Below, one piece after another: positions 2,172 through 51,480 of a DNA stretch of 64,000 bases. The first letter of the stretch is position 1; each line of letters opens with the position of its first letter. A model generated the notes under the pieces. The model made no database searches. It saw nothing but the letters and a program-made list of their open reading frames with translations, and was not told the DNA's origin. A program made the translations under genes and the position numbers. The DNA comes from Heloderma charlesbogerti (Eukaryota; Chordata; Lepidosauria; Squamata; Helodermatidae), in the NCBI GenBank assembly GCA_026122225.1, contig JANEZZ010002764.1, positions 868,001 through 932,000 on the forward strand, written 5' to 3'.

Positions 2172-2666
2172 TAGGGATGTACAAAAGTTCCGCCACAGAT
2201 CACGGGGAGGCCGAATGCCAGCGCATTCGGCCCCCCGAAATTGGTGGCGGAACGGCCCGCCCCCCCGGGACGGGACTTACCTTGGGCGGATCTTCCTGGC
2301 TGCAGCGCCTCCAGTGGCAGCTCCGGTGGCGGTTTGGTGGCGGCGGCTGCGGCAGCTGGTCTTCCGACTGGCTGCCACTGCTGCCATTTCCAGGTTAAAA
2401 AAAAAAACACATGATAGGCTACGTAAATGTTTACGTAGCCTATCACGGCTGACTTCAGGGACGCAAACGGCGGCAGCTACGGCCACCATTTGCGTCCCTG
2501 CTAGCCAGCGGCCGGATGTCCGGCTGCTGGCGGAGCCAGCCGGCGGCTCCGCAGAATCACTGCGGAGCACAGCCGGCTGGCCAGGATTCCAGGGGGAGGA
2601 ACGGAGCGCCTCCCCACCCACCATCAGCATAATCCACGAAAGGTAAGTGATTTTCGTACATCCCTG
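2172..2666 (-). mobile_element. nested-palindrome hAT-like element, one-hairpin form
   Basis: Termini are TAGGGATGTAC on the left and GTACATCCCTG on the right. The 8-bp TSD gctatatg is perfect (2164-2171 and 2667-2674). The B end is left and the A end right. The core has one TGATAGGCTACGTAAA palindrome (2412-2445, 16-bp arms, 2-bp loop) and one CGCAAACGGCGG...ATTTGCG hairpin (about 2461-2496). Outward GTAAGT sites occur at both ends (2275-2285 on the minus strand, 2642-2648 on the plus strand). With 495 bp and a single major hairpin it may represent the ancestral layout. It interrupts a CR1-type LINE. Short ORFs across it are chance frames. Confidence 0.92.
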
Positions 2667-5634: not shown

Positions 5635-6498
5635 TAGGGATGTACGAAAGGCACTTACATTTCCGCTGATTAAGCTGATGATGGGGGGGAGGCGTCCGTC
5701 CTCCCCCGGATCTGCCGGGAGGCGCTCCTCCCCCCCGGAATCCTGGCCAGCCGGCTGTGCTCTGCAGGGATTCTGCGGAGCCGCCAGCCGGCTCCGCCAG
5801 CAGCCGGACATCCAGCCGCTGGCTAGCAGGGACGCAAATGGCGGCAGCCATAGCCGCCGCCGTTTGCGTCCCTGCAGTCAGCCGTGATAGGCTACGTAAA
5901 TGTTTACGTAGCCTATCACGGCTGATTTTTTTAAAAAAACAAACGTGGGTACGCAAATGGCGGCAGCCATGGCCGCCGCCATTTGCGTTCTTTATTTTGG
6001 CACGTCTTAGTCTATATAAACATTTACGTCTACGCTATTTGCGTTCCCCTTATTTTCGCCATCTTAGTCTACATAAATGTTTACGTAAACTAAGACATGC
6101 CAAAACAAGGAACACAAATGGCGGCGGCCATGGCCGCCGCCATTTGCATACGCGCATGGTGTTTTTTTGCTTTTTTTTTAAGTCAGCCATGATAGGCTAT
6201 GTAAACATTTACGTAGCCTATCACGGTGGTTTTTTTTAAATCTAGCCGTGATAGGCTACGTAAATCTTTATGTAGCCTCTCACGTTTTTTTGTTTTGTTT
6301 TTGTTTTTAACTGGAAATGGCGGCGGCGGCAGCCGGTCGGAAGACCAGCAGCCGCCGCTGCCGAACCGGAGCCACCGCCGCCAGGAAGATCCGCCCCAGG
6401 TAAGTCTCGTCCCGGGAGGGGGCGGAGGGGCAGACCGTTCCACCACCAATTTCATTCGGCCTCTCCGAGATCCATGGCGGAATTCTCTGACATCCCTA
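5635..6498 (+). mobile_element. nested-palindrome hAT-like element, long form
   Basis: The 8-bp TSD gtagaaag is perfect (5627-5634 and 6499-6506). The A end is TAGGGATGTACGAAAGGCAC and the B end is GAATTCTCTGACATCCCTA. The GC-rich A block (about 5660-5860) is followed by a core palindrome (5881-6224) and a further ACGTAAAT hairpin (about 6246-6284). Two ACGCAAATGGCGGC hairpins (5951-5988 and about 6114-6148) face each other across the centre. GTAAGT sites lie at both ends (GTAAGTGCC in reverse near 5652, AGGTAAGTC near 6398). No transposase frame is present. Confidence 0.95.
5881..6224. repeat. large palindrome with hairpins nested in each arm
   Basis: The outer hairpins (5881-5922 and about 6183-6224), the ATGGCGGC hairpins (5951-5988 and 6114-6148) and the CACGTCTTAGTCTA / ACTAAGACATGCC units are mirror images about a centre near 6050. 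Arms are about 170 bp with small loops and scattered mismatches. Confidence 0.85.
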
Positions 6499-6757: not shown

Positions 6758-7552
6758 TAGGGATGGCGGAGAATTCCGCCATGGATTTCAGTGAGGCTGA
6801 ATGCACTGGCTTTCAGCACCCCGAAATCCGTGGTGGAACGGCCTGCCCCCCCCATGGATCCCCCCCGGGACGAGACTTACCTGGGGCAGATGTTCCAGAT
6901 GGCGGCGGCTCCTCCGGATGGCGGCGGCTCCAGCGGTGGCTTCAGTGGCGGTGGCTGGTCTTTTGACCGGCTGCCGCGGCCGCCATTTGCAGTCTGGTCT
7001 TTGCCGTGATAGGCTACATAAGTCTTTACATAGCCTATCACGTCTGGGTAAAAAGAAAAAAACAGCGTATGCAAATGCTGGCGGCTACGGCGGCCGCCAT
7101 TTGCGTTCCTTACTTTTTGCCATTTTAGTCTACGTAAATATTTACGTAGACTATTACGGCGAAAAAAAGGGGGAACGTAAATAGCATAGTGGCCGCCATT
7201 TGCGTTCCTTATTTTTTGCCATTTTAGTCTATGTAAATATTTACGTAGACTATTACGGTGAAGAAAAAGGAGAACGCAAATAGCGTAGTGGGCGCTATTT
7301 CGTTCCTTTTTTATTCGCCGTTTTAGCCTATGTAAATATTTACATAGACTAAAATGGCGAAAAATAAGGAACGCAAATGGCGGCCACTATGCTATTTACG
7401 GAGCCGCTGCAGAGCAGAGCCAGCCATCGAGGATTCTGGTGGGAGGACCAGATCGCCTCCCCCTCGTCGAGGATTCCGGGGGGAGGGAGAGAGCGCCTCC
7501 CCCCACCATGAACAGAATCCGCAAAAAGGTAAGTGACTTTCGTACATCCCTA
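6758..7552 (-). mobile_element. nested-palindrome hAT-like element, TTTTAGTCTACGTAAA subtype
   Basis: The 8-bp TSD catttgtt is perfect (6750-6757 and 7553-7560). B end left (TAGGGATGGCGGAGAATT), A end right (AAGTGACTTTCGTACATCCCTA). The core starts with a TGATAGGCTACATAAG hairpin (about 7005-7041). It continues with TTTTAGTCTACGTAAA hairpins centred near 7137, 7240 and 7336, separated by GCAAATGGCGGC or GCGTAGTGGGCGC hairpins. The whole 7069-7400 stretch mirrors about 7240. Outward GTAAGT sites lie near 6885 (reverse) and 7529. Confidence 0.95.
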
Positions 7553-11711: not shown

Positions 11712-12486
11712 TAGGGATGTACAAAAGTCACTTGCCATTTCGAAGGGTGACATTCGCGGTGGGTGGGAGGCGCTCCAAAATTCTCTCCGGCCCGCTCTGC
11801 TCCGTGGAGATTCGGCGGAGCTGCCGGCCAGGGCCACCCGCAGCCGGGCATCTGGCCGCTGGGCAGCCTGCAGGGACGCAAATGGCGGCGGCCATAGCCT
11901 CCACCATTTGCGTCCCTGTATTTTGCCGTGATAGGCTACGTAAATATTTACGTAGCCTATCATAGCAAAAAACACACAAAACAGCAGATGGAAATGGCGG
12001 CAGCAACAGCGGCCGCCATTTGCGTTCCCTTTTTTTTTTGCCATTTTAGCCTACGTAAATATTTACGTAGGCTATTACAGCAAAAAAAAGGGGGGGGAAT
12101 GCAAATGGTATAGTGGCCGACATTTGCGTTCCCTTTTTTTTTTTTTGCCGTAATAGCCTACGTAAATATTTACGTAGGCTAAAATGGCAAAAAAAAGGGG
12201 AACGCAAATGGTGGCGGCCATAGCCGCCACCATTTGCGTTCCCTTAGTTAAGCCGTGATAGGCTACATAATTATTTATGTAAGCTATCACGGCTATAATG
12301 AGGAAGCGAATGGCAGACGCAGACGCCATTTGCAAGTCAGCGCAGACAGCAGCAGGTAAGTGCTCCGTTTCGCGCGCCTTTCGTGGGGGGGGCCGGGGGG
12401 CTTCGTTCTGCCATGGATTTCGGGGGCCCGAATGCACTGGCATTCGGCCTCACCGAGATCCGTGGCAGAATTCTCTGACATCCCTA
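11712..12486 (+). mobile_element. nested-palindrome hAT-like element, TTTTAGCCTACGTAAA subtype
   Basis: A end TAGGGATGTACAAAAGTCAC; B end GAATTCTCTGACATCCCTA. The flanks give an imperfect TSD (ggtacagg left, agcacagg right, 6 of 8). The core has a TGATAGGCTACGTAAA palindrome (11929-11962). A mirrored set of TTTTAGCCTACGTAAA hairpins and ACGCAAATGG hairpins follows (about 11992-12240, centre near 12114), then a TGATAGGCTACATAA hairpin (about 12250-12293). The A-end donor-like site is decayed to GCAAGT; the B-side site CAGGTAAGTG is intact near 12354. Confidence 0.9.
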
Positions 12487-13105: not shown

Positions 13106-13597
13106 TAGGGATGTTAGAGAATTCCGCCACGGATCCCAGGGGGGCCAAATTCCAGTAAATTCGGCCCCCCGGAATCCGTGGCGGAACAGAGCAACCCGCC
13201 CCACCACCCCGCAAAAGCCCAACGAAACGGAGCCTACCTGGCTCCGAAACCATTTGCGTATGCACTCTTTTTTTTTTTTTACTCAGCCGTGATAGGCTAT
13301 GTAAACATTTACGTAGCCTATCACAGCTGACTGCAGGGACGCAAATGGCGGCAGCTATGGCCACCGCCATGTGCGGGCCCGGCCGGCCAGGATTCGGGGG
13401 TGGAGGGATGGAGTGCCTCCCCCCCCGGCCAGAATTTGGGGGGGGGAGGGACGGAGCGCCTCCCCCCCGGCCAGAATTTGGGGGGGGAGGGACGGAGCAC
13501 CTCCCCCCGGCCAGAATTTCAGGGGGGGAGGGACGGAGCGCCTCCCCCCCACCACAAATCAAATTTCGTTAAAGATAAGTGACTTTCGTACATCCCT
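13106..13597 (-). mobile_element. nested-palindrome hAT-like element, one-hairpin form without TSD
   Basis: B end left (TAGGGATGTTAGAGAATTCC), A end right (GTGACTTTCGTACATCCCT). The core has a single TGATAGGCTATGTAAA palindrome (about 13287-13328) and a CGCAAATGGCGG hairpin. The A block is a clean tandem array (see next entry). The flanks (ccaaaagc and ggttttat) do not match, so the copy is either rearranged or recombined. The A-end donor-like site is GATAAGTG. The 212-codon frame at 12924-13562 (-) is a chance frame across repeats. Confidence 0.88.
13378..13555. repeat. tandem array of about 4 x 42-bp GC-rich units in an A block
   Basis: The unit runs CGGCCAGAATTT, a G run, AGGGACGGAGCGCCT, a C run. 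Four near-identical copies follow one another. The G and C runs can pair, so each unit is itself a hairpin. Other copies carry one to three such units in the A block. Confidence 0.85.
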
Positions 13598-14521: not shown

Positions 14522-15744
14522 TAGGGATGTACGAAATGTACTCACCCGTCCGTTCTGAGGCATCAGCGGGGGGGGGGGCACTCTTCCCTCCCCCCGGAAT
14601 CCTCCCCGGCCGGCTCCACTCTGCGGAGCTGCCGGCCAGGGCTGGCCGCAGCCGGAATTCTGGCCGTGGCCGGGCTGCTGCGGCCGCAAATGGTGGCCGC
14701 TACGCTGGCCGCCATTTGCGTAGGAATGTACGAAACTCACCTTTTTGCGGAATCTTTCGCAGTGGGGGGGATGGGGGGGAGGCGATCTGGTCCTCCCCCC
14801 CCCCGGAATTGATGGCCGGCTCCGCTCCGCGCCCAGGCCACAGAGCACCCAGCCAGGGCCGTCCGCAGCCGGATTTCCGGCCGCGGACGGGCTGCTGCAG
14901 ATGCAAATGGCAGCTGCCATTTGTGTCCAGCCAGGCAGCCGTGATAGGCTACGTAAGAATTTATGTAGCCTATCACGGCAACCCCCCCAAAAAAAACCTA
15001 GTGTACGCAAATGGCGGCGTACTACTATGCTATTTGCATTCCCTTTTTTCGCCGTTTTATCTTACATAAATATTTACGTAAGATAAATTGGTGAAAAATA
15101 GAGAATGCAAATGGCGGCCACCGTAGCTGCCGCCATTTGCATACGCTGGGGTTTGGGGGGGGTTAGCTGTGATAGGCTACGTAAATTCTTACATAGCCTA
15201 TGAAGGCTGCAAGGATGGCAATGGCGGAGGCAGCAGCAGCCCGGTCGCGGCCAGCCAGGAGACCAGCTGCCGCTGGAGCCACCGCCGCCGAATCCGCTGC
15301 ATCCGCCCCAACTAAGTGCCGTCCCGGGGGGATTCCGCGGGGGGGGCAGGAGGCGGTTCCACCACGGATTCCGGGGGGCCGGAATCTAAAGAATCCGGCC
15401 TCACTGGAATCTGTAGCGGAATTCTCTGACATCCCTACATTTGCGTGGCTGCCAAGCCGCGATAGGCTACATAAGTATTTACATAGCCTATCATGGCAAA
15501 AGGAAGCCACGCAAATGGCAGCCACTACAACAGACACCATTTGCGGCTGCAGCAACCCAGCAGTGGCTGGGAGACCAGCCAGAGCCGCCACCACCGGAGC
15601 CACTGCTAGAGCTGCTGCCAGGGAAGCTCCGTCCCGGGGGATTCTGCCAGGGGGGGGAGGCCGTTCCACCACGGATTCCACGGGGCCAGATTCTAAGGAA
15701 TCTGGCCTCACTGGAGTCCGTGGCGGAATTCTCTGACATCCCTA
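14522..15744 (+). mobile_element. nested-palindrome hAT-like element (outer, split by a second copy)
   Basis: The 8-bp TSD atacacag is perfect (14514-14521 and 15745-15752). A end TAGGGATGTACGAAATGTAC, B end GAATTCTCTGACATCCCTA. A second complete copy (14721-15437) sits inside. Without it and one TSD the outer element is about 498 bp, the size of the one-hairpin copies at 2172 and 13106. Its remaining hairpin is at about 15455-15497. The A-end donor-like site is GTGAGT. Confidence 0.93.
14721..15437 (+). mobile_element. nested-palindrome hAT-like element inserted in another copy
   Basis: The 8-bp TSD catttgcg is perfect (14713-14720 and 15438-15445). That target is the GCCATTTGCG arm of the outer element's own hairpin. 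The A end has one mismatch (TAGGAATG) and the B end is ACATCCCTA. Hairpins: TGATAGGCTACGTAAG (about 14938-14979), GCAAATGGCGGC (15007-15038), TTATCTTACATAAATA (about 15050-15093), GCAAATGGCGGC (15107-15140) and TGATAGGCTACGTAAA (about 15164-15206). They are mirrored about 15072. Confidence 0.95.
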
Positions 15745-24498: not shown

Positions 24499-24506
24499 AT
24501 TAAGAC

Positions 24507-25371
24507 TAGGGATGGCGGAGAATTTCTCCCCGAAACTTCGGGGGTCCGAGCGCCAACGTGTTCGGCCCCCTGAACAAGTTTCGGGGAGAAATCCTCTGCA
24601 CCCCACCCCCACCCCCCGCACCTCCCCCCGGGACGGGACTTACTTTCGCCGAATATCCCTCCCGGTGGCGGGTCCGGCCGGCGGTTCGGTGGGTGTTCGA
24701 GCAGGGCGGGAGCGGCAACCAGTCCTTCGACCGGCTGCCGCCGCCGCCATTCCAATAAAAGAAAAAAAAAAAAAACGCCCCCATGATAGGCTACGTGACG
24801 ATTAACGTAGCCTATCACGGCTAGATTTGGAAAGTCAGCCATGATAGGCTACGTTAATCATCACGTAGCCTATCACGGGTGACTTAAAAAAAAAAAAAGC
24901 GCGTATGGATAATGGCGGCCCCCATAGGGAGCCGCCATTCCCATTCCTTATTTGGTCGCTGTAGTCTACGTAATCATTTACGTAGACTACAGCGACTAAA
25001 TAAGGAACGTGAATGGCGGCTCCCTATGGGGGCCGCCATTAGCATACGCGCTTTTTTTTTTTTTTAAGTCACCCGTGATAGGCTACGTGACGATTAACGT
25101 AGCCTATCACGGCTGACTTTGCAGATCTAGCCATGATAGGCTACATTAATCGTCACGTAGCCTATCACGGGGGCGGGGTTTTTTTTAAAAAAAAAACAAT
25201 GGAGTTCGCGGCCGGGCAAGGCGGGAAGCCTCCTCCCCGGCCTGAATTTCGGCCGGGCGAGGCGGGAAGCCTCTCCCTCCCGGCCTGAACTTCGCGGGGG
25301 GAGCCACGAAGCGCCTCCCCCCCACCGCGAACAAGCTTCGACGAAAGGTAAGTGCCTTTCGTCCACCCCTA
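24507..25371 (-). mobile_element. nested-palindrome hAT-like element, most symmetric copy
   Basis: The 8-bp TSD attaagac is perfect (24499-24506 and 25372-25379). B end left (TAGGGATGGCGGAGAATT), A end right (CTTTCGTCCACCCCTA). The B block has its own inverted repeat (GAATTTCTCCCCGAAACTT against AGTTTCGGGGAGAAAT) and a GACCGGCTGC palindrome remnant. The core is the 400-bp palindrome at 24776-25175. The A block holds tandem CGGCCTGAATTTC / GGCGGGAAGCCTC units. Outward GTAAGT sites lie near 24645 (reverse) and 25347. Confidence 0.96.
24776..25175. repeat. 400-bp near-perfect palindrome holding seven smaller palindromes
   Basis: Mirror partners keep exact register: CGCCCCC at 24776-24782 pairs with GGGGGCG at 25169-25175, and both give a centre at 24975.5. 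The central GTCGCTGTAGTCTACGT hairpin (24955-24996) has the same centre. Nested inside: TGATAGGCTACGTGACG (24784-24817) with its mirror near 25130-25168; GATAGGCTACGTTAATC (about 24839-24878) with its mirror near 25072-25113; AATGGCGGCCCCCATAGG hairpins (24911-24939 and 25012-25040). The A run at 24886 and T run near 25052 also pair. Confidence 0.95.
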
Positions 25372-25473
25372 ATTAAGACATGGATATGGCCAAGCGCGCA
25401 TGAAGATGGATGACCACATTAAAATTGGAAACATTTGATTTTACACGTTTCCCAGTAGGCTGGAAGCTATGAA

Positions 25474-28108: not shown

Positions 28109-28581
28109 CAGGGATGTCATGCGTTTGGGGGGTGGAATTTGACAAGATTTCCTAAGCTCGGCCCCCTAGGACTTTGTTTTGGTTCCCAATGCAGCGCCCG
28201 ACTTGATCTGCAATGAGTCAGGCCACTTGGCAGATTCTCTGGAAATTTTGGACATTGTTTTGGAAAAGTTCTGCATTTTGCACAAATTTCTGAGCAATTT
28301 TCTCAAATTATGGTGAAATTTGCTGAAATTATGGCCAAAGTCACATAATTTGCACACATTCAGCCATAATTTCCACAAATTTGGCCATAATCTGCACAAA
28401 TTGCTCAGAAATCCGCACAAATTGCAAAATCTTCCCAAAAACAAAAAAAATGCACAAAGAAGCTAATGGAATTTGGGGAACAGCCTCAGCTCAGTTTGCA
28501 GATGCAAACGAAGTCGTACACACTGTAGAACTCAGTAGAGCCCCAAAAGAACCAGATTTCCCAGCAAATTGGACATCCCTA
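28109..28581. mobile_element. hAT-like MITE with GGACATCCCT termini
   Basis: Termini are CAGGGATGTCATG and GGACATCCCTA. The flanks tagtccac (28101-28108) and aagtccac (28582-28589) match at 7 of 8. The interior carries short mirrored modules GCACAAATTNC / GAAATTTGTGC and GGCCATAATTT / AAATTATGGCC. The termini equal the B-end sequence of the large palindromic family, so it may be a distant relative. Confidence 0.75.
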
Positions 28582-30375: not shown

Positions 30376-31307
30376 TAGGGGTGGACGAAAGTGACTTACC
30401 TGTCGTCGAAGCTTGTTCGCGGTGGGGGGGAGGCGCTTTGCTGCTCCCCCCGCGAAGTTCAGGCCGGGGGGGGAGGCTTCCCGCCTCACCCCGGCCGAAA
30501 TTCAGGCCGGGGAGGAGGCTTCCTGCCTCGCCCGGCCGCGAACTCGAAAGTTAAAAAAAAAAAAAAACGCCCCCGTGATAGGCTATGTGACGATTAACGT
30601 AGCCTATCACAGCTAGATCTGCAAAGTCAGCCATGATAGGCTACGTTAATCGTCACGTAGCCTATCATGGGTGACTTAAAAAAAAAAAAAACGCGTACGC
30701 TAATGGCGGCCCCCATAGGGAGCCGCCATTCACGTTCCTTATTTGGTCGCTGTAGTCTACGTAAATCTTTACATAGACTACGGTGAAAATAAGGGCAACG
30801 CAAATAGTGTTGCCTTATTTTCGCCGTAGTCTACGTAAATCTTTACGTAGACTACAGCGACCAAATAAGGAACGGGAATGGCGGCTCCCTATGGGGGCCG
30901 CCATTATCCATACGCGCGTTTTTCTTTTTTTTTAAGTCACCCGTGATAGGCTACGTGACGATTTACGTAGCCTATCATGGCTGACTTTGCAAATCTAGCT
31001 GTGATAGGCTACGTGAATCGTCACGTAGCCTATCACGGGGGCGTTTTTTTTTTTTCTTTTACTGGAATGGTGGCGGCGGCAGCCGGTCGAAAGACCGGCT
31101 GCTGCTCCCACCCCGCACGAACACCCACCGAACCGCCGGCCGGACCCGCCGCCGGGAGGGACATTCGGCAAAGGTAAGTCCCATCCCGGGGTGGTGTGCG
31201 GGGGGCGGGGGGGTGCGGAGGATTTCTCCCCAAAACTTGTTCGGGGGGCTGAACACGTTGGCGCTCGGCCCCCCGAAGTTTCGGGGAGAAATTCTCCACC
31301 ATCCCTA
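30376..31307 (+). mobile_element. nested-palindrome hAT-like element, longest copy
   Basis: The 8-bp TSD ggcacaac is perfect (30368-30375 and 31308-31315). A end TAGGGGTGGACGAAAGTGAC, B end GAAATTCTCCACCATCCCTA. The A block carries two CCGGCCGAAATTCAGGCCGG units. The core (30568-31043) has two more central hairpins than the 24507 copy. The B block includes a CAGCCGGTCGAAAGACCGGC palindrome (about 31080-31100) and the AACACGTTGGCGCTCGGCC module. Outward AGGTAAGTC and CAGGTAAGTCAC sites lie at the two ends. Confidence 0.96.
30568..31043. repeat. 476-bp palindrome with nine nested hairpins
   Basis: CGCCCCC (30568-30574) mirrors GGGGGCG (31037-31043), giving a centre near 30805. The centre is an AAGGGCAAC / GTTGCCTT hairpin flanked on each side by a GTCTACGTAAATCTTTAC hairpin. 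Outside these lie the AATGGCGGC hairpins and two TGATAGGCTACGT hairpins per arm. Compared with 24776-25175 the middle has been enlarged by an inserted, itself symmetric, module. Confidence 0.92.
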
Positions 31308-32331: not shown

Positions 32332-34066
32332 GGTCCTCCCATGCCTGCTGTAGAATAGGTTGGGTGTACTTTGCATGGTTCCCCTTCATGGATCACTGCC
32401 TTGTTGTGGCGAAGGGGCTTGCATAACTCAGTGAAGCCATAAGCTATGCCATGCAGGGCCACCCAAGATGGACAGATCATGGCAGAGAGTTCTGACAAAA
32501 TGTGGTCCACTGGAGAAGGAAATGGCAACCCACTCCAGGATTCTTGCCAAGAAAACCCCATGGAGCGTATCACAAGGCTAAAAGAGATGACACCAGAAGA
32601 TGAGCCCCTCAGGTCGGAAGGTGTCCAATATACTACTGGGGAAGAGCAGAGGGAATTTCCAAATAGCGCCAGAAAGAGTGAAGCGGCTGGGCCAAAGCCG
32701 AAAGGATACTCAGCTGTGGATGTGTCTGGTGGTGAAAAGAAAGTCCGATGCTGTAAAGAACAATATTGTTTAGGAACCTGGAATGTAAGATCAATGAATC
32801 AAGTTAAGCTGGAGGTGATCAAACATGAGATGGCAAGACTGAACATCGACATCTTGGGAATCAGTGAACTAAAATGGACAAGCGTGGGCGATTTTAATTC
32901 AGGTGACCATCATATCTACTACTGTGGGCAAGAATCCCTTAGAAGACATGGAGTAGCACTCATAGTCAACAAAAGGGTGGGAAAAGCAGTACTGGGTACA
33001 ATCTCAAAAATGATAGAATGATCTCAGTACGAATCCAAGGCAAACCATTCAACATCACAGTAATTCAAGGCTATGCCCCAACCACTGATGCTGAAGAAGC
33101 TGAGGTTGATCGGTTCTATGAAGACCTACAACACCTTCTAGAACTAACACCAAAAAAAGATGTCCTCTTCATCATAGGGGATTGGAATGCTAAAGTAGGA
33201 AGTCAAGAAATCACTGGGGTAACAAGCAAGCATGGCCTTGGTGTACAAAATGAAGCAGGACAAAGGCTAATCGAGTTTTGCCAAGAGAACATGCTGATCA
33301 TAGCAAACACTCTTTTCCAACAGCACAAGAGGCGACTCTACACATGGACATCACCAGATGGTCAATATCGAAATCAGATGGATTATGTCCTTTGCAGCCA
33401 AAGATGGAGAAGCTCTATACAGTCAGTAAAAACAAGACCTGGAGCCGACTGTGGCTCAGATCATGAGCTTCTTCTTGCAAAATTTTGGCTGAAATTGAAG
33501 AACGTAGGGAAAACCACTAAACCATTCAGGTATGACCTAAATCATAGCCCTTATGAATATACAGTGGAGGTGGTGAATAGGTTTAAGGGATTAGACCTGA
33601 TAGACAGAGTGCCTGAGGAACTATGGACGGAGGTCTGTAACATTGTTCAGGAGGCAGCAACTCAATCCATCCCAAAGAAAAAGAAATGCAAGAAAGCAAA
33701 GCGGCTGTCTGATGAGGCTTTACAAGTAGCTGAGGAAAGAAGGGAAGCGAAAAGCAAGGGAGAAAGGGGAAGATATACCCAACTGAATGCAGAGTTCCAG
33801 AGAATAGCAAGGAGAGACAAGAAGGCCTTCTTAAATGAACAATGCAAAGAAATCGAAGAAAACAGTAGAATGCGAAAGACCAGAGATCTCTTCAAGAAAA
33901 TCGGAGATATCAAGGGAACATTTTGTGCAAAGGTGGGCATGATAAAGGACAAAGAAGGCAGGGACCTAACCGAAGCAGATGAGATTAAAAAGAGGTGGAA
34001 AGAATACATAGAAGAACTATACAGGAAAGATCTTAATATCCCTGATAGCCATGATAGTGCGGTCAC

Positions 34067-34984
34067 TAGGGATGGACGAAAGGGACTTACCTCGTCCCGC
34101 AGCTTGCTTCGCGGTGGGGGGGAGGCGCTTCGGTTCTCCCCCCGAAATTCAGGCCGGGGGGGAGGCACCCCATCCCTCGCCGCTGAAATTCAGGCCGGGG
34201 AGGAGCGCCCCGTCTCCCCGGCCGCGAAAAAAAAGTAAAGTAAAAAAAACCAAAAACACACCCGTGATAGGCTACTACGTAACGATTTATGTAGCCTATC
34301 ACGGCTAGATTTCCAAAGTCAGCCGTGATAGGCTACGTAAAACGTCACGTAGCCTATCGCGGGTGACTTTGAAGAAAAAAGGGGGAAAAAGCGCGTACTC
34401 AAATGGCGGCGGCCCATGAGCACCGCCATTTGCGTTCCTTAGTTTGGCACGTCTAGTCTACGTAAAGATTTACGTAGACTACGGTGAAAATAAGGGAATG
34501 CTATTTGCGTTGCCCTTATTTTCGCCGTAGTCTACATAAATCTTTACGTAGACTAGACGTGCCAAACTAAGGAACGCAAATGGCGGCGCCCATGGGCCGC
34601 CGCCATTTGCATATGTGCTTTTTTTTTTCAAAGTCACCCGTGATAGGCTATGTGACGATTTACGTAGCCTATCACAGCTGACTTTGGAAATCTAGCCGTG
34701 ATAGGCTACGTAAATCGTTACGTAGCCTATCACGGGTGTGGGTGTGGTTTTTTTTTTACTTTTTTATTTTGCAATGGCAGCAGCGGCAGCCGGTCAGAAG
34801 ACCGGCCACCACCCCCGCTGAAACGCCGCCAGGACCCGCCGCCGAGAGGGACATTCGCACGAGGTAAGTCCCATCTGGGGGGGGGCGGGTGGCCGGCAGA
34901 GAATTTCACCAACAATTTTGGGGGGACGAATGCGTTGGCATTCGGCCTCCTGGAGATTCGTGGAGAAATTCTCCGCCATCCCTA
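34067..34984 (+). mobile_element. nested-palindrome hAT-like element inside BovB
   Basis: The 8-bp TSD gcggtcac is perfect (34059-34066 and 34985-34992) and lies in the BovB ORF, so the empty site is known. A end TAGGGATGGACGAAAGGGAC, B end GAAATTCTCCGCCATCCCTA. The A block has two CCGAAATTCAGGCCGGGG units. The B block has GGTCAGAAGACCGGCC. AGGTAAGTC near 34862 and GTAAGTCCC in reverse near 34084 point outward. Length 918 bp. Confidence 0.97.
34258..34739. repeat. about 482-bp nested palindrome core
   Basis: ACACCC (34258-34263) mirrors GGGTGT (34734-34739), centre near 34499-34504. In order there are two TGATAGGCTACGTAA-type hairpins, an AAATGGCGGCGGCCCATG hairpin, a TAGTCTACGTAAAGATT hairpin and a central AAGGGAATG / TTGCCCTT hairpin, then the same set in reverse. 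The outer flanks AGATTTCCAAAGTCAGC and GCTGACTTTGGAAATCT also pair, so symmetry extends through the spacers. Confidence 0.9.
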
Positions 34985-37393: not shown

Positions 37394-37531
37394 CAGGGGT
37401 AGACAACTTGTAGCCCTCCAGATGTTGTGGGACTGCAAGACCCATCATGCCTAGCTAACATAGCCAATTATGACAGAAGATGGGAATTGTAGTCCAACAA
37501 CATCTGGAGGGCCACCAGTTGCCCAGCCCTG
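37394..37531. mobile_element. 138-bp hAT-type MITE with perfect TSD
   Basis: The 8-bp TSD ccttacac is perfect (37386-37393 and 37532-37539). Terminal inverted repeats are CAGGGGTAGACAACTTGTAG and CACCAGTTGCCCAGCCCTG. The arms CCCTCCAGATGTTGTGGG and CAACATCTGGAGGG pair. Together with 10459-10589 it fixes the family as hAT. Confidence 0.92.
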
Positions 37532-40440: not shown

Positions 40441-40489
40441 TATAAAATCTATATTATATAATTGTGAGCAAGAGGCTGAAGGTCAGTCA

Positions 40490-41054: not shown

Positions 41055-41070
41055 AGTTGGGGGTAACAAT

Positions 41071-41896
41071 TAGGGGTGCACGAAAGTCACTTACCTGGTC
41101 TCGCAGCTTTTCGCGGTGGGGGGGAGGCACTTTGCTGCTCTCCCCGCGAAGTTCAGGCCGGGGGGGGAGGCTTCCCGCCTCGCCCGGCCGAAATTCAGGC
41201 CGGGGAGGAGGCGCCTCACCTCGCCCAGCCGCGAAATAAAAAGTTTTTAAAAAACGCCCCCGTGATAGGCTACGTGACGATTAACGTAGCCTATCACAGC
41301 TAGATCTGCAAAGTCACGTAGCCTATCGTCACGTAGCCTATCACGGGTGACTTTAAAAAAAAAAAACGCATACGCAAATGGCGGCCCCCATAGGGAGCCG
41401 CCATTCGCGTTCCTTATTTGGTCGCTGTAGTCTATGTAAATCTTTACATAGACTACGGCGACCAAATAAGGAACGTGAATGGCGGCTCCCTATGGGGGCC
41501 GCCATTAGCCGTACGCGCTTTTTTTTTTTTTTTAAGTCACCCGTGATAGGCTACGTGACGATTTACGTAGCCTATCACGGCTGACTTTGCAGATCTAGCC
41601 GTGATAGGCTACATTAATCATCACGTAGCCTATCATGGGGGTGTTTTGTTTTTTTTTCTTTTATTGGAATGGCGGCGGCGGCAGCTGGTCAAAAGACCAG
41701 CTGCCGCTCCCACCCCTGACGAAGACCCGACGAACCGCCGGCCGGACCCGCCGCCGGGAGGGACATTCGGGAAAGGTAAGTCCTGTCCCGGGGGGCGGGG
41801 GGTGCAGAGAATTTCTCCCCGAAACTTCTTCGAGGAGCCGAACACGTTGGCGCTCGGCCCCCTGAAGTTTCGGGGAGAAATTCTCCACCATCCCTA
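41071..41896 (+). mobile_element. nested-palindrome hAT-like element in CR1
   Basis: The 8-bp TSD gtaacaat is perfect (41063-41070 and 41897-41904). A end TAGGGGTGCACGAAAGTCAC, B end GAAATTCTCCACCATCCCTA. The core palindrome runs from CGCCCCC (41255) to GGGGGTG (41643). The left arm has lost about 16 bp in its second hairpin (about 41312-41345), which breaks the symmetry seen at 24776-25175. Outward GGTAAGT sites are intact at both ends (near 41091 and 41775). Confidence 0.96.
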
Positions 41897-41904: not shown

Positions 41905-44830
41905 GGATGAAGGCTCATGCACCACAACGGCGAGAACAGCTCTAATAGCACCCAATAATAGTCTTCACAAACATGTAGGAAGAAAGCCAGACCATGAAGC
42001 ACATGGTCTTTGATGTCTATATACTAATGCCCAGAGTATGGACAAAAAAACAGAATGAACTTGAACTCTTAATACAGGAGGGAAATTATGACTTGATGGG
42101 ATGACTGTCATAACTGGAATACAGCATTTGAAGGATATAACTTGTTGAAAAAGAACAGGAGGAACAGAAGGGGAGGTGGGGTTGCACTATATGCAAAAAA
42201 TACATATCTCTGCACAGAAATACAGGAGGATGAGCTTGGAACCCCCATCAAGAGCATCTGGGTTAAAATAAATTCAGCAAAGAATAAAAGGAACCTGGTG
42301 GTTGGAGTCTACTACCGGCCACCCAATCAAGGAGAAGACGAGGATGAAACTTTTGAAAAGCAAATAGCCAATGTTTTAAGGAAGCATGATGTAGTAGTAA
42401 TGGGGGACTTCAATTTCCCCAATATTTGTTGGGAGACAAATTCTGCAAAACATGGCCCCTCCAGGAAATTCCTGACATGTGTGGCGGATAACTTCCTCCT
42501 ACAGAAAGTAGAGGAAGGAACTAGAGGATCGGCTATCCTTGACTTGATCCTAACCAACAGAGATGACTTAGTGGATCAAGTAGCAGTTACAGGAACTCTG
42601 GGGGAAAGCGACCATGTTGTACTTGAGTTCTTGGTTCTAAGGCAAGCAAAAGCCGAGTGTAGTCAAACACGTACCCTGGATTTTAGGAAAGCTGATTTTA
42701 ATAAACTCAGAACAACGATCAGTAAGGTCCCATGGCAAGTGACTCTAACGAGAAAAGGAGTGCAAGATGGGTGGGAATTTTTAAAAAAGGAAATTCTCAA
42801 GGCACAATTACAAACAATTCCAACAAGAAAAAAAAGGTGAAAGGCAACAGAAAAAGCCAATGTGGCTTCACAAAAAGTTTAGAGATGACCTGAAAACAAA
42901 AACAAGACACATACAGGAAGTGGAAAGAAGGCCAAGCAACAAAGGAAGAGTACAGGCAGGTAGCACAGAATGGCAGGGATGGCATCAGAAAGGCTAAAGC
43001 TGAGAACGAGCTGATGGATTAGTTAGCGATGGATGCTAAAAGCAACAAAAAAGCTGTCTTCAGCTACATGCATAGTAAAAGACAGAGGAAAGAAATGTTG
43101 GTTCAGCTATTCAATAAGGATGGCAAATCCAATATGGATTTATCAAGAACAAATCCTGCCAGACGAATCTGATCTCATTTTTTGATCAAGTAACCTCCCT
43201 TGTGGACTGTGGGAATGCTGTAGACATAATATACCTCGACTTCAGCAAAGCTTTCAACAAAGTTCCCCATGATATCTTGATGAGCAAACTAGCTCAAAGT
43301 GGGCTAGATGAAACAACAATCAGGTGGATCCACAATTGGCTATAGAATCAGATTCAAAGAGTGCTTCTCAGTGGGATCTTCTCAAACTGGGGAGAAGTAA
43401 CAAGCGGGGTACCGCAGGGCTCAGTCCTGGGCCCAGTGCTCTTCAACATTTTTATTAATGACTTGGAGGAGGAGGTGCAGGGAATGCTGATCAAAATTGG
43501 GAGGGGTAGCTAATACTTTGGAAGACAGAAACAAAATTCAAGGTGATCTTGATAGGCAGGAGGGCTGGGCAGAAAACAACAGAATGAAATTTAATAGGGA
43601 TAAATGCCAAGTTCTGCACTAGGTAAAAGTAACCAAATGCATAGTTACAAGATGGGGGATACTTGGCTCAGCAACACTACAAGCAAGAAGGATCTTGGAA
43701 TTGTTGTCGATCACAAGCTGAATATAAGCCAACGATGTGATGTGGCTGCAAAAAAGGCCAATGCTATTTTGGGCTGCATTCATAGAAGCATCGCTTCCAA
43801 ATCCCGGGAAGTACTAGTTCCCCTCTACTCAGCACTGCTTAGGCCTCATCTGGAGTACTGTGTCCAGTTTAGGGATGTACAAAAGTCACTTACCTTTTCG
43901 CAGCTTGCCTTCGCGGTGGGGGGGAGGCGCTTCGCTTTCCCCCCCGAAGTTCTGGCGAAGAGGGGGAGGCTTCTCGCCTCACCCGGCCGAAATTCAGGCC
44001 GGGGGGGAGGCTTCCCGCCTCGCCCGGCCGAAATTCAGGCCGGGGAGAAGCGCCCCGTCTCCCCAGCCGCAAAACAAAAAGTAAAAAAAATAGACCCCGT
44101 GATAGGCTACGTGACGATTTAATTAGCCTATCACGGCTGACTTTGTAAATCTAGCTATGATAGGCTACGTAAATCGTTACGTAGCCTATGCACGGGTGTT
44201 GTTGTTTTTTTTTACTTTACTTTTTTTTTTTTTTTGCAATGGCGGCGGCAGCCAGTCAGGAGACTGGCCGCCACCCCCGCCCGCGACGAACCGCCACCGA
44301 ATCGCCACTGGGACCCGCCGCCGGGAGGGACATTCGCCAAAGGTAAGTCCCATCCCGGGGGGGCGGAGAATTTCACCGCCAATTTTGGGGGGCCGAATGC
44401 GTTGGCGCTCGGCCCCCCGAAGATTCGGGGAGAAATTCTCCGCCATCCCTAGTCCAGTTCTGGGTGCCACACTTTAAGACGGATGCAGACAAACTGGAAA
44501 GGGTTCAGAGGAGGGCAACAAAGATGATCAGGAAACAAAGCCCTGTGAAGAGAGACTGAAAGAACTGGGCATGTTTAGCCTTGAGAAGAGAAGACTGGGG
44601 GGAGATAGGATAGCACTCTTCAAGTACTTGAAAGGTTGTCACAGAGAGGAAGGCCAGGATTTCTTCTCGATCATCCCAGAGTGCAGGACACAGAACAATG
44701 GGCTCAAGTGGCAGGAAGCCAGATTCTGGCTGATCATCAGGAGAAACCTCCTGACTGTTAGAGCAATATGACAGTGGGACCAATTACCTACGGAGGTGGT
44801 GGGCTCTCCCACACTGGAGGCGTTCAAGAC
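41905..44830 (+). pseudogene. CR1 ORF2 (endonuclease and reverse transcriptase), broken
   Basis: The endonuclease part is clear from GGGVALYAKNTYL (about 42175) through VVGVYYRPPN, VVMGDFNFPNICWE (about 42394) and LGESDHVVLEF (about 42598). The RT resumes near 43130 with YLDFSKAFNKVPHDI (about 43233) and [20 protein letters not shown] (about 43405). The catalytic Asp-Asp box is not visible where expected (about 43484-43500) and seems deleted. The C-terminal YSALLRPHLEYCVQF is cut by the second transposon at 43869 and resumes at 44460 with KLERVQRRATKMI. Several stops and frameshifts are present. Confidence 0.88.
43870..44451 (+). mobile_element. nested-palindrome hAT-like element, core-deleted copy in CR1
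   Basis: The 8-bp TSD gtccagtt is perfect (43862-43869 and 44452-44459). A end TAGGGATGTACAAAAGTCAC, B end GAAATTCTCCGCCATCCCTA. Only the two outermost hairpins remain (about 44098-44138 and 44155-44196). The whole middle of the large palindrome is gone, and the spacer CTGACTTTGTAAATCTAGC joins them directly. The A block has three GGCCGAAATTCAGGCCGG-type units. The total is 582 bp. Loss of a palindrome centre is the usual outcome of hairpin-mediated slippage or excision. Confidence 0.95.
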
Positions 44831-45152: not shown

Positions 45153-45901
45153 TAGGGATGTATGAAAGTCACTTAACTTGAACGAAATTTGATTCACGGT
45201 GGGGGGGAGGCGCTCCGTGCCTCCCCCCGAAATTCTGGCCAGGGGGGAGGCGCTCCGTCCCTCCACCCCCAAATCCTGGCCAGCCAGGCCGCAAATGGCA
45301 ACGGCCATAGCCACCACCGTTTGCGTCCCTGCAGTCAGCTGTGATAGGCTACGTAAATGTTTACGTAGCCTATCACGGCTGAATAAAAAAAACCAAAAAA
45401 AACACCGTGCGTACGCAAATGTCTACGCTATTTGCATTCCCCTTATTTTCGCCGTAATCTACATAAACGTTTACATAGACTAGATGTGCCAAAATAAGGA
45501 ATGCAAATGGCGGCGCCCATGGGCGCCGCCATTTGCGTACGCGCGGTGGTTTGTTTGTTTTTTTACTCAGCCGTGATAGGCTACGTAAACATTTACGTAG
45601 CCTATCACGGTATTTTTTAAAAAATCTAGCCGTGATAGGCTACGTAAATCTTTACGTAGCCTATCACGTTTTTTTGGTGTTGTTGTTTTTTACTGGAAAT
45701 GGCAGCAGCAGCAGCCGATTGGAAGACTGGCAGCCGCCGCACTGCCGCCGGAGCCACTGCTGCCAGGAGGATTCGCCCAAGGTAAGTCCCGTCCCAGGAG
45801 GGGGGCGGGGGGGCAGACCGTTTTGCCACCAATTTCGGGGGGCCAAATGCGCTGGCATTCGGCCTCCCCGAGATTCGTGGCAAAATTCTCTGACATCCCT
45901 A
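45153..45901 (+). mobile_element. nested-palindrome hAT-like element
   Basis: The 8-bp TSD catttcag is perfect (45145-45152 and 45902-45909). A end TAGGGATGTATGAAAGTCAC, B end AAATTCTCTGACATCCCTA. Hairpins: TGATAGGCTACGTAAA (about 45335-45382), a partly deleted AAATGTCTACGC unit (about 45416), AATCTACATAAACGTTTACA (about 45455), CAAATGGCGGCGCCCATG (about 45504-45538) and two further TGATAGGCTACGTAAA hairpins (about 45568-45610 and 45628-45668). The right arm is complete, the left arm truncated. The A-end donor-like site is decayed (TTAAGTGAC); the B-side AGGTAAGTC is intact near 45780. Confidence 0.95.
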
Positions 45902-47240: not shown

Positions 47241-48079
47241 TAGGGATGTATGAAAGTCACTTACCGTTTCACGGATCTGCTTCGCGGTGGGGGGGAGGTG
47301 CTCCGTCCCTCCCCCCGGAATCCTTGACGGGGGGAGGCGCTCCATCCCTTCCCCCAGAGTCTTGCCCGGCCCTCTCCGTTGGGATTCCGCAGAGCCGCCG
47401 GCCAGCTCCGCCCGCAGCTGGACATCCAGCCGCTGGGCAGCAAGGACGCGAATGGCAGCAGCCATAGCCGCCGCCATTTGTATTTAACTGTGATAGGCTA
47501 CGTAAATATTTACGTAGCCTATCACAGCAAAGTAAAAAAAAAACACGTACGCAAATGACGGCGGCTACAGCGGCCGCCATTTGCATTCCTTTTTTTCGCC
47601 ATTTTAGCCTACGTAAATATTTACGTAAGCTATTACGGCGAAAAAAAGGGGGGAATGTAAATAGCGTAGTGGGCGCTATTTGCGTTCCCCCCTTTTTTCG
47701 CCGTAATAGCTTACGTAAATATTTACGTAGGCTAAAACGGCGAAAAAAAGGAACGCAAATGGCCGCCGTAGCCACCGCCATTTGCGTATGTGGTTGTTTT
47801 ATCTTGCCGTGATAGGCTATGTAAGTATATACACAGCCTATCACGTCTATGAAGAGGACGTGAGTGGCGGCCGCGGAGGCGGCCGCTATTTGCTAGTCGT
47901 CATGGACGGCAACAGGTAAGTGCTCCATTTCACGCACGTGTAGTGGGTTGGGGGATCCGTTCTGGGCCCATTTCACAGGGTGGTGATGGGGAGGCTTCGT
48001 TCCACCATGGTTTTCAGGGGGCCGAATGCACTGGCATTCAGCCTCACGGAGATCCATGGCGGAATTCTCCACCATCCCT
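47241..48079 (+). mobile_element. nested-palindrome hAT-like element, TTTTAGCCTACGTAAA subtype
   Basis: The 8-bp TSD attcatca is perfect (47233-47240 and 48080-48087). A end TAGGGATGTATGAAAGTCAC, B end GAATTCTCCACCATCCCT. The core is a 240-bp palindrome (47548-47787, centre near 47670) with two TACGTAAATATTTACGTA hairpins and the central ATAGCGTAGTGGGCGCTAT hairpin. It is flanked by TGATAGGCTACGTAAA (about 47490-47528) and TGATAGGCTATGTAAG (about 47808-47846) hairpins. Intact GTAAGT sites lie at both ends (GGTAAGTGA in reverse near 47261, AGGTAAGTG near 47916). Confidence 0.95.
47548..47787. repeat. 240-bp nested palindrome core
   Basis: ACGCAAATGACGGCGGC (47548) mirrors GCCACCGCCATTTGCGT near 47785. 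The centre ATAGCG...CGCTAT is near 47670. Each arm has one full small palindrome. The same design occurs at about 11992-12240 and 7069-7400. Confidence 0.9.
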
Positions 48080-48087
48080 ATTCATCA

Positions 48088-49200: not shown

Positions 49201-51480
49201 TCAATGTTTAATGTGCCTTCATGGAATGTCAAAGGGCTGCGAAATGTAAACAAACAGAAAAGAGTTCTTACCAAGTTAAAAGAGTTTGATGTTGCCATGG
49301 CCTTCTTACAAGAAACTCACTTGATGACTGCAGATCGGCAGATGTTGCAAAAGGATTGGGTTGGGGAGGCCTATGTCACAGACACTTCAACATGGTGTAG
49401 AGGGGTGGTGATTTTAATTCATAAGCAACTTTCCACCTCAGTTCAACAGGTGATTTTTGATACTGAGGGGTATTTTTTTATCTTGGTAGGAAGGTAAACG
49501 GGCAAATTAATTGTTATGATCAATGTATATGGGCCAAATATTGATTCTCCGGCTATGTTTCATGATTGTTTTGCTAAACTGGTTGATATTATCTATAATT
49601 ATCTGATTGTGGGTGGGGACTTTAACGAGGTCTCAGTAGGGGTGGATGAAAGTCACTTACCTGTCGTCGAAGGCCGTTCGTGGTGGGGGGGAGCGCTTCG
49701 CTGCTCCCCCCGCGAAGTTCAGGCCGGGGGGAGGAGGCTTCCCGCCTCGCCCGGCTGAAATTCAGGCCAGGGAGGAGGCTTCCCGCCTCACCCGGCCGAA
49801 ATTCAGGCCGGGGAGGAGGCGCGTCGCCTCGCCCGGCCGCGAACGCAAAAGTAAAAAAAAAAAAAAAAAACGCCCCCTGATAGGCTACGTGACGATTCAC
49901 GTAGCCTATCACGGCTAGATCTGCAAAGTCAGCCGTGATAGGCTACGTGAATCGTCACGTAGCCTATCACAGGTGACTTTAAAAAAAAAAAGCGCTATTT
50001 GCGTTGCCCTTATTTTCGCCATAGTCTACGTAAACATTTACGTAGACGACAGCCACCAAATAAGGAACGGGAATGGCGGCCCCTATGGGGGCCGCCATTA
50101 TCCGTACACACTTTTTTTTTTTTTTTTTTAAAGTCACCCGGGATAGGCTACATGACGATTCACGTAGCCTATCACAGCTGACTTGGCAAATCTAGCCGTG
50201 ATAGGCTACGTGAATCGTCACGTAGCCTATCAGGGGACGTGTTTTTTTTTTTCTTTGATTGCAATGGCGGGGGCGGCAGCCGGTCAAAAGACCGGCTGCT
50301 GCTCCCGCCCTGCTCAAACACCGGACGAACCGCCAGCCGGACCCGCCGCCGGGAGGGACATTCAGGGAAGGTAAGTCCCGTCCCGGGGGGGGCGGGGGGG
50401 TGCGGAGGATTTCTCACCGAAACTTGTTCGGGGGGCCGAACGCGTTGGCGCTCGGCCCCCCGAAGTTTCGGGGAGAAATTCTCCACCATCCCTAGGTCTC
50501 AGATCCTCTGTTAGATAGGAGTACACCTCCTCCTAAGACTCAATTTGCAGAGAGACTTATATGATGGAATATGGTTTAATCGATGCTTGGAGAATTTTCT
50601 GTCCTGCAGACAGAGAGTATACTTTTATTTCACCAGTTCACCATAATTGCTTTAGATTAGACTATTTTTTTATTTCTACAACTTTAGTAGGTCAAATCAA
50701 AGACTGCAAGATTGATACATTGGTAGTGTCAAATCATACTCCGGTATGTTTGGAACTGCAATTTCGGAATTTCCTAGGGCCCCCGGTCTTTGGCGTTTTA
50801 ATATTTCACTTCTTAATGATGAGAAGTTTAAAACCCAGATGTTAGCTGAACTACTAATACTAATGAGGGCACAGCAGGTTCATGCACCATTGAATGGGAG
50901 GCTAGTAATGCTTTTATAAGGGGCAGAATTATTTCTTATGCTTCCCATCAAAAAAAGCTTTAAAAAAACTCCACAGACACATTGAAGCTGAAATTTCTCA
51001 TAACTCAGTTTGCCACATCCCCTATAGCACAACTTTGTCAAGAGCTACAGAATACTAAGTGTGAGTTGAATAATATCCTCTTACAACAGGTGGAATTTGC
51101 TCTGACATGTCTACGACAGAAATATTGGGGAAATGGTGAATGTTCTAGTAAGACCTTGCACATCATCTTAAACAGCACCAACATCAAAATGTTATTTCAG
51201 CTATTAAAGATGAGAGTGGTAAAGTATATACTTCTCCTACAGACATAAACTCACAATTTTTAAAGTTTTATGTTGATCTGTATAGTACCAGTAATATCCA
51301 TGCAAGATATGGATGTTTTTTTTCTCAGATTCATCTTCCATGTTTAGATTCTTCACAATAACAGCTCCTTTTAGCTCCCCTGTGTTGTTTAGAGGAAATC
51401 ATGAATGCAATAATTAAAATGAATACTTGGAAATCACCCGGACCGGATGGATTCCCAAACATTTCTTAGCTTTTTAGCCC
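49201..51480 (+). pseudogene. L1/Tx1-like ORF2 endonuclease and RT N-terminus, broken
   Basis: Readable motifs: SWNVKGLRNVNKQKRVLTKL (about 49219), FLQETHLM (about 49306), CRGVVILIHK, INVYGPN (about 49519), LIVGGDFNEVS (about 49604), and after the insertion RLDYFFIS (about 50656) and VVSNHTPVCLEL (about 50722). Further on KMNTWKSPGPDGF (about 51417) marks the RT entry motif. Breaks are an in-frame TAA at 49495-49497, the 858-bp insertion, and frameshifts near 50770 and 51100. The SxHxP endonuclease motif resembles L1/Tx1 rather than CR1. Confidence 0.78.
49637..50494 (+). mobile_element. nested-palindrome hAT-like element in an L1/Tx1-like LINE
   Basis: The 8-bp TSD ggtctcag is perfect (49629-49636 and 50495-50502). 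A end TAGGGGTGGATGAAAGTCAC, B end GAAATTCTCCACCATCCCTA. The A block has three GGCCGAAATTCAGGCCGG-type units (about 49711-49812). The core starts at CGCCCCC (49871) and lacks the left AATGGCGGC hairpin, so the left arm is shorter than the right. Hairpins are intact at about 49877-49913, 49932-49972, 50023-50047, 50072-50099, 50135-50175 and 50196-50233. Outward GGTAAGT sites are intact at both ends. Confidence 0.96.

What the first reader, a model, noticed from the sequence alone, without database searches (positions are those of the whole stretch)
24507..25371. A hAT-like transposon whose core is a palindrome made of palindromes
Seen directly: the core (24776-25175) is a 400-bp inverted repeat in exact register about 24975.5, and each arm holds three complete smaller palindromes, with a seventh at the centre. 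Spacers and A/T runs are mirrored too. Copies at 30376, 34067, 5635, 6758, 11712 and 47241 share the design with different hairpin numbers. Established: 8-bp TSD with (C/T)AGGG termini fits hAT, whose MITEs are normally simple. Inference: this two-level symmetry is a distinct element architecture that may have grown by palindrome doubling. I do not know of a described family like it, but I could not search.
Basis: partly seen in the sequence, partly recalled or inferred. Interest (0 to 1): 0.93.

Follow-up and report, generated by a model that had tools for sequence, protein, structure and literature searches.

The report
Jumping gene with nested hairpin core
A lizard-like genome carries a family of small jumping DNA pieces whose middle is a large mirror-image repeat built from smaller mirror-image repeats, and differences between copies suggest that the mirror halves were copied from one another.

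Summary
The core 24776-25175 matches its own reverse complement at 178 of 200 positions about 24975.5 (mean 50.9, sd 6.8 over 62,000 axes) and holds seven smaller hairpins. It is one of 15 related elements in the window (17.5% of it); 12 have perfect 8-bp target duplications, and one lies inside another. At 3 of 4 LINE-hosted sites tested, joining the flanks restores an open LINE frame. So this is a non-autonomous, hAT-like family; no transposase was seen.

The nesting is more than tandem duplication: asymmetric marks inside hairpins are mirrored in 23 of 23 pairs that the mirror model predicts, although among all 35 neighbouring pairs 10 fit direct repetition better. Arms changed together: 20 of 186 columns differ identically in both arms of E9 against four relatives (1.7 expected). 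Copies form a structural series in which the right arm became a mirror of the left. Best reading: fold-back template switching built and repaired the symmetry in source elements (inferred). Dfam, Repbase and the host genome could not be searched, so novelty is provisional: a new variant of a known kind.

The parts
24499..24506 (.). left copy of the 8-bp target duplication ATTAAGAC
24507..25371 (+). element E7, whole
   Evidence: ends TAGGG...CCCTA with perfect 8-bp duplication
24515..24599 (+). 5' subterminal hairpin (arms 24515-24538 and 24576-24599)
24762..24775 (+). A-run at the outer edge of the left arm
24776..25175 (+). palindromic core, axis 24975.5
   Evidence: 178 of 200 positions symmetric; fold z -39
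24781..24820 (+). A hairpin 1 (left arm, outer)
24839..24878 (+). A hairpin 2 (left arm, inner), inverted relative to hairpin 1
24911..24939 (+). B hairpin, left arm
24956..24995 (+). central A0 hairpin, on the axis
25012..25040 (+). B hairpin, right arm
25073..25112 (+). A hairpin 3 (right arm, inner)
25131..25170 (+). A hairpin 4 (right arm, outer)
25179..25186 (+). T-run mirroring part of the left A-run
25209..25294 (+). GC-rich 41-bp tandem units of the 3' tail
25372..25379 (.). right copy of the target duplication ATTAAGAC
2172..2666 (+). E1, short member, duplication GCTATATG; strand set by its left-end sequence, not by the orientation pattern
5635..6498 (-). E2, asymmetric grade (A-A left, A-B right), duplication GTAGAAAG
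6758..7552 (+). E3, with direct 99-bp repeats, duplication CATTTGTT
11712..12486 (-). E4, B-A-B-A'-b-A'-B-A-B grade, duplication 6 of 8
13106..13597 (+). E5, internally deleted, no target duplication found
14522..15744 (-). E6 outer element (498 bp without the nested one), duplication ATACACAG
14721..15437 (-). E6 inner element, 717 bp, duplication CATTTGCG, inside a B hairpin of the outer one
30376..31307 (-). E8, two central A0 hairpins, duplication GGCACAAC
34067..34984 (-). E9, two central A0 hairpins, inside a BovB-type LINE, duplication GCGGTCAC
41071..41896 (-). E10, one central A0 hairpin, duplication GTAACAAT
43870..44451 (-). E11, internally deleted, inside a CR1-type LINE, duplication GTCCAGTT
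45153..45901 (-). E12, asymmetric grade, duplication CATTTCAG
47241..48080 (-). E13, same grade as E4, duplication ATTCATCA with one-base offset
49637..50494 (-). E14, one central A0 hairpin, right B lost, inside a LINE reading frame, duplication GGTCTCAG

Best explanation
E7 is a non-autonomous hAT-like DNA transposon moved by a transposase made elsewhere (transposase inferred; insertion products shown). Its interior is an array of two alternating hairpin types, A (about 40 bp, GATAGGCTACGT...ACGTAGCCTATC) and B (about 30-46 bp, AAATGGCGGC...GCCGCCATTT), arranged as a mirror image (shown). The symmetry was built and at times restored in the source elements by copying one side of a folded repeat onto the other: fold-back template switching during replication or gap repair, or an equivalent arm-to-arm conversion (inferred). 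The copying touched single hairpin halves and whole arms. After insertion the copies decayed independently (arms of E7, E8, E10 and E14 do not group by element).
For: Transposon: 12 of 15 elements have perfect 8-bp duplications. T at position 2 or A at position 7 of the duplication in 13 of 24 places (6.6 expected, P 0.005; the consensus was recalled and the test chosen after seeing the sites). Joined flanks give an open LINE frame across the site at E9, E11 and E14, not at E10. Inverted, not tandem: within-arm A pairs of the E7 subfamily are closer inverted in 10 of 10, cross-axis partners in 9 of 9, the two central hairpins of E4, E8, E9, E13 in 4 of 4, and outer-versus-inner pairs across the axis are closer direct in 9 of 9, as the mirror model predicts. 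Arm copying: E9's two arms form a clade (100/99) and share the same change in 20 of 186 columns (11 more differ in one arm only; 1.7 shared expected). The outer half of the central hairpin reads GGCA(C/T)GTC(T)TAG in both arms of E2 and E9, and GGCACATCTAG in E12's left arm, but GGTC(or G)GC(T/C)GT in both arms of E7, E8 and E10 and in E14's left arm, nearer to the inner half TTTTC(G/A)CC(G/A). One stem position is paired in 47 of 49 A hairpins with three symmetric states (G 35, T 8, C 4; 28.2 expected). Series: the right side is A-B in E1, E2, E5, E12 (junction marker) and E4, E13, but repeats the left A-spacer-A block mirrored in E7, E8, E9, E10, E14. Template switching makes and repairs stems elsewhere (PMC8794818, abstract and Discussion read; PMC8604942, abstract).
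Against: No transposase or autonomous partner seen. Arms of one element do not cluster within E7, E8, E10, E14 (1 of 7 inner branches strongly supported). E4 and E13 arms show no clear homogenisation (L-R 23.4% and 15.1%, L-L 19.4%, R-R 16.0%). Permuting whole hairpin halves gave a mean of 797 and a maximum of 860 paired cells in 5000 shuffles against 833 observed, so that test is not extreme. Over all 35 neighbouring A pairs, 20 are closer inverted, 10 direct, 5 tied, and E3 holds direct copies (42 v 34). The gain in pairing at the central hairpin is modest: halves agree at 12 and 13 of 22 in E9 and 14 in E2, against 16 and 18 in E8 and 15 in E14 (the E12 and second E2 hairpins were out of register or deleted there and are not counted). 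A mirrored outer T-run of 7 or more is present in E7, E8, E9 and E14 but not E10. Direction of change rests on parsimony over few copies of one window.
Confidence: 0.66

Rival explanations
1. Selection keeps the hairpins: the folded DNA or RNA is needed for movement or expression, and paired changes are ordinary compensatory mutations.
For: Stems of outer A and B hairpins differ less at non-CpG sites (3.5% and 2.0%) than the 5' end (5.5%), tail (6.7%) and core spacers and runs (10.0%) among E7, E8, E10, E14. One stem position has three symmetric states.
Against: The central hairpin differs most (13.0%, though alignment gaps there may inflate it). Mirrored spacers and runs outside stems and identical multi-base blocks in both arms are not explained by pairing within one hairpin. 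Internally deleted copies E1, E5 and E11 have target-site evidence of movement in 2 of 3 cases, though the deletions may postdate it.
Confidence: 0.15
2. One ancestral inverted duplication made the core once; everything since is point mutation, deletion and tandem duplication.
For: Arms of E7, E8, E10, E14 do not group by element; L-L is closer than L-R for E4; E3 has direct repeats.
Against: E9 arms share 20 of 186 changes; asymmetric layout of E2 and E12 against mirrored layout of the E7 group.
Confidence: 0.12
3. Tandem duplication of a palindromic monomer: alternating palindromes in tandem look symmetric about every centre.
For: Tandem Repeats Finder reports 57-, 59-, 99-, 102- and 115-bp periods in some copies; E3 pair is direct.
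Against: Asymmetric marks are mirrored in 23 of 23 predicted pairs and direct in 9 of 9 where the mirror model predicts direct.
Confidence: 0.04
4. It is an ordinary hAT MITE family already in Dfam or Repbase for some squamate, with the nesting unnoticed or noted there.
For: At 15 copies in 64 kb a repeat library for the species would be likely to hold it (inference).
Against: None found in the listings of ten searches, but no repeat library was searched.
Confidence: 0.4
5. Fold-back artefact of sequencing or assembly.
For: Long inverted repeats can be made by fold-back reads (recalled).
Against: The design recurs with different mutations in separate insertions with their own duplications.
Confidence: 0.01

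Closest known systems
Non-autonomous hAT elements, e.g. the MITE Mar of Drosophila (PMC3517528, passages read)
   Same: 8-bp target duplications, short imperfect terminal repeats (Mar: CAG(G/A)GGTAGGC), no coding capacity
   Different: Mar's paper has 0 occurrences of 'palindrom' or 'secondary structure' and a Buster-type target consensus nnnTAnnn; here central TA is 0 of 12 and the interior is a hierarchy of hairpins
Foldback-type elements: Galileo (PMC4168063, abstract), Tm1 (PMC3169594, passages)
   Same: Inverted repeats that vary in length and inner repeat number between copies
   Different: There the variable inverted repeats are terminal and lengthen by inner tandem repeats or added sequence, in the P and Mutator superfamilies; here the inverted repeat is internal and made of hairpins mirrored about an axis
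Template-switch creation and repair of stems (PMC8794818, abstract and Discussion; PMC8604942, abstract)
   Same: Reverse-complement copying gives paired multi-base changes on both sides of a stem
   Different: Described for RNA genes and yeast coding DNA; here it would act inside a transposon, at nested levels, on arms of 20 to about 200 nt (the largest pattern in the Discussion of PMC8794818 was up to 59 bp and failed quality control)
Stowaway MITEs (PMC1925063, passages)
   Same: Palindromic MITEs; the paper notes that central deletion of a large palindrome would give nested palindromes of decreasing size
   Different: That is a thought experiment on size series across copies, not palindromes within palindromes in one element; the one-hairpin centre of E7, E10, E14 may be such a central deletion of the E8/E9 type
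Coral CMITEs (PMC2872659, abstract)
   Same: Internal region more conserved than the ends between families
   Different: piggyBac-related; its abstract mentions no palindromes

Membership tests
hAT superfamily (non-autonomous) | 8-bp target site duplication | tested here: met
   12 of 15 elements perfect, one more with a one-base offset, one 6 of 8, one none; 3 of 4 LINE sites restored
hAT superfamily (non-autonomous) | Short terminal inverted repeats with (C/T)A(A/G)NG-type ends (recalled consensus) | tested here: met
   TAGGG or CAGGG at both ends of the 11 family elements, with 10 to 13 of the first 15 bases agreeing between ends; the nested element has one decayed end, TAGGA
hAT superfamily, Ac-type | Target preference nTnnnnAn (recalled) | tested here: inconclusive
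   13 of 24 against 6.6 expected, P 0.005, 12 sites only
hAT superfamily, Buster-type | Target preference nnnTAnnn (PMC3517528) | tested here: not met
   0 of 12
hAT superfamily | Moved by an hAT transposase | not testable with these tools
   No autonomous copy identified; of ten stretches scanned in Pfam, four gave endonuclease domains (two of them below the curated cut-off) and six nothing; the host genome search did not complete
MITE | Short, non-coding, many copies | tested here: met
   492 to 932 bp, 15 copies in 64 kb; only one element-derived open frame was searched for relatives, 224 candidates, none significant
Foldback elements | Long inverted repeats reaching the element's ends | tested here: not met
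   In E7 the symmetric match is 178 of the inner 200 but only 62 of the next 200 positions out, near the background of 51; ungapped test only

The most novel reading that the evidence does not exclude
A self-symmetrising transposon: a hAT-like family whose new subfamilies arise when fold-back copying doubles or overwrites an arm, so that the palindrome grows in hierarchical steps (half-hairpin, hairpin pair, arm, core), with asymmetric intermediates such as E2 and E12 still in the genome.
Probability: 0.35. Interest if true: 0.75.

Novelty: new variant of a known kind. Interest (0 to 1): 0.57.

Why it matters
How palindromic transposons get and keep their symmetry is little tested. This family offers many copies in different structural grades, including asymmetric ones, so that arm copying could be tested by tree and by breakpoint in a single genome. 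If confirmed it would also be a natural record of template switching over tens to hundreds of bases in a vertebrate germ line.

Tried and rejected
Chance symmetry: rejected. Simple tandem origin: rejected for the E7 group and for the centres of E4 and E13, kept for E3. Buster-type hAT: rejected on target sites. A hairpins outside the elements: none of the 49 found by pattern in the window. Viral and prokaryotic collections: exact-pattern scans for the A hairpin found nothing (the tool warns that the window's own genome may be left out); the 5' end pattern hit one viral contig, where BLAST of all elements gave only the same 18-20 bases, taken as chance. RNA families at gathering threshold and tRNAs (bacterial code): none. 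An open frame lying mostly in E2 was used to look for the family among predicted proteins: 224 candidates, none significant. The BovB-type frame was searched to place the host: only the best 120 of 7998 matches are listed; the best is filed under a bacterium on a 2.3-kb contig (probably contamination), the next named ones are squamates (Varanus, Zootoca, Podarcis, Pogona, Anolis) and cattle; this fits a squamate but does not name the host. E1 and E5 were considered as simple ancestors and read instead as internal deletions. The permutation of whole hairpin halves was not informative. My own E12 and second E2 centres were out of register or deleted and were dropped from the pairing comparison.

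Full report
What is there. The element 24507-25371 (E7 here) has the ends TAGGGATGG... and ...CCACCCCTA and lies between two copies of ATTAAGAC. Its core is symmetric about 24975.5: 178 of 200 positions match without gaps, against a mean of 50.9 (sd 6.8) over the 62,000 axes tested in the window. The core holds seven hairpins: A, A, B in the left arm, a central A variant (A0), then B, A, A. Spacers and most of the A/T runs are mirrored as well. Folded as DNA the core has z -39 (100 shuffles); the whole element folded as RNA has z -49 (20 shuffles). Such scores are expected of any long palindrome and say nothing on function.

The family. BLAST of E7 against the window gave 15 intervals. They resolve into 14 separate elements, one of which (14522-15744) contains a second complete element (14721-15437, duplication CATTTGCG) inside a B hairpin. 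So there are 15 elements, covering 11,214 bases or 17.5% of the window. Twelve have perfect 8-bp duplications; E13 has one if an end base is lost, E4 matches at 6 of 8, E5 has none. All 49 A hairpins found by pattern (at least 17 of 24 stem positions) lie inside these elements; five shuffled windows gave none.

Insertions are real. E9 lies in a BovB-type LINE, E10 and E11 in a CR1-type LINE, and E14 in a third LINE reading frame. The names BovB and CR1 are recalled from sequence features; one search agrees for BovB, and of ten stretches scanned in Pfam four gave endonuclease domains, two of them just below the curated cut-off, and six gave nothing. Joining the flanks with one copy of the duplication gives an open LINE frame across the site at E9, E11 and E14; at E10 all three frames are broken and the test says nothing.

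Which superfamily. The 8-bp duplications and TAGGG-type ends fit hAT. T at position 2 or A at position 7 is found in 13 of 24 places (6.6 expected, P 0.005), the Ac-type preference as I recall it; the central TA of Buster elements is found in 0 of 12 (Buster consensus from PMC3517528, passages). No transposase was available, so I file it as hAT-like and non-autonomous.

Nesting tested. If the array were a tandem repeat of two palindromes, long-range symmetry would follow of itself. I therefore compared hairpins in direct and inverted orientation, using the asymmetric bases inside them. In the E7 subfamily the two A hairpins of one arm are closer inverted in 10 of 10 pairs; partners across the axis are closer inverted in 9 of 9; outer-versus-inner pairs across the axis are closer direct in 9 of 9; the two central hairpins of E4, E8, E9 and E13 are closer inverted in 4 of 4. 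These are the pairs that the mirror model predicts. Over all 35 neighbouring pairs of the window the tally is 20 inverted, 10 direct, 5 tied, and E3 shows a true direct repeat (42 v 34). So E7 has three levels of mirror symmetry: half-hairpin, hairpin pair, arm.

Copying between arms. Left and right arms of E7, E8, E9, E10 and E14 were aligned, with E11's single arm; the tree used the ten paired arms. E9's two arms form a clade with support 100/99. In 20 of 186 comparable columns (210 columns kept) both E9 arms differ in the same way from the other four elements; in 11 only one arm differs; independence predicts about 1.7 shared ones. Within E7, E8, E10 and E14 the arms do not group by element, so the symmetry was set in source elements and has decayed since. 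The clearest block is the outer half of the central hairpin: GGCA(C/T)GTC(T)TAG in both arms of E2 and E9, GGCACATCTAG in the left arm of E12, but GGTCGC(T/C)GTAG in both arms of E7, E8 and E10 (one A for G in E7's right arm) and GGTGGCTGTCG in the left arm of E14. The inner half begins TTTTC(G/A)CC in E2, E8, E9, E12 and E14. By parsimony the second state is derived, and it resembles the inner half more; the gain in pairing is modest (12 and 13 of 22 in E9, 14 in E2; 16 and 18 in E8, 15 in E14). At single hairpins, one stem position shows three symmetric states (G 35, T 8, C 4) and is paired in 47 of 49 (28.2 expected), and E6's inner element has TATCTTAC in both halves of its central hairpin. 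A permutation of whole halves was not extreme (833 observed; mean 797, maximum 860 of 5000), because the two halves of many hairpins differ systematically. E4 and E13 arms give no clear sign of homogenisation.

A structural series. E4 and E13 read B-A-B-A'-b-A'-B-A-B. E2 and E12 have A-A on the left but A-B on the right. E8 and E9 have A-A on both sides and two central hairpins; E7, E10 and E14 have one central hairpin, and E14 has lost its right B. The right A-B junction (at most two mismatches) is found in E1, E2, E5 and E12 and in none of E7, E8, E9, E10, E11 and E14. The left spacer mark GGCTAGAT (exact in E2, E7, E9, E10, E12, E14) appears mirrored on the right exactly in E7, E9 and E14 and with one change in E8 and E10. 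A mirrored outer T-run of at least seven is present in E7, E8, E9 and E14, not in E10. The simplest order is that the outer right part of the E7 group was overwritten or extended by a mirrored copy of the left, up to the A-run. E1 and E5 look like internal deletions.

Mechanism. Reverse-complement copying by template switching can create stems and correct both sides of a stem (PMC8794818, abstract and Discussion read; arm homogenisation in PMC8604942, abstract). It explains mirrored multi-base blocks and the asymmetric grade. Whether it happened in replication or in repair after excision is not shown, and the arm lengths needed here exceed those in that Discussion (largest pattern up to 59 bp, which failed quality control). 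Selection on structure is the main rival: among E7, E8, E10 and E14 the outer A and B stems differ less at non-CpG sites (3.5% and 2.0%) than the 5' end (5.5%), tail (6.7%) and core spacers (10.0%), while the central hairpin differs most (13.0%). Both may act.

Novelty. The listings of ten full-text searches showed hAT MITEs, foldback elements with long terminal repeats and template-switch papers, but no nested-palindrome hAT family; several listings were capped and I read only seven papers in part. No repeat library was at hand, and the host genome could not be searched (11 unanswered tries, last). I file it, provisionally, as a new variant of a known kind.

Noticed in passing
window 37394-37531: A 138-bp element with CAGGG ends and a perfect 8-bp duplication CCTTACAC: a different, simple hAT-like MITE.
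   Followed up: no
window 32443-36525: A BovB-type LINE hosting E9; right after the insertion the target region is repeated in frame (DSHDSAVTEL).
   Followed up: partly
window 40352-44700: A CR1-type LINE stretch that has received two members of this family, E10 and E11.
   Followed up: partly
window 14721-15437: One family member inserted into a B hairpin of another.
   Followed up: yes
window 28109-28581: CAGGGATG/TAGGGATG ends with a one-mismatch 8-bp duplication; may be chance.
   Followed up: no
window 13383-13550, 25209-25294, 43962-44045, 49685-49839: GC-rich units of about 41 bp in the 3' tails vary from about two to four copies between elements.
   Followed up: no
B hairpins of E7, E8, E10, E14: CpG sites in B hairpins differ in only 3 of 48 pairwise comparisons, against 21-33% in the other segments; small sample.
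   Followed up: no
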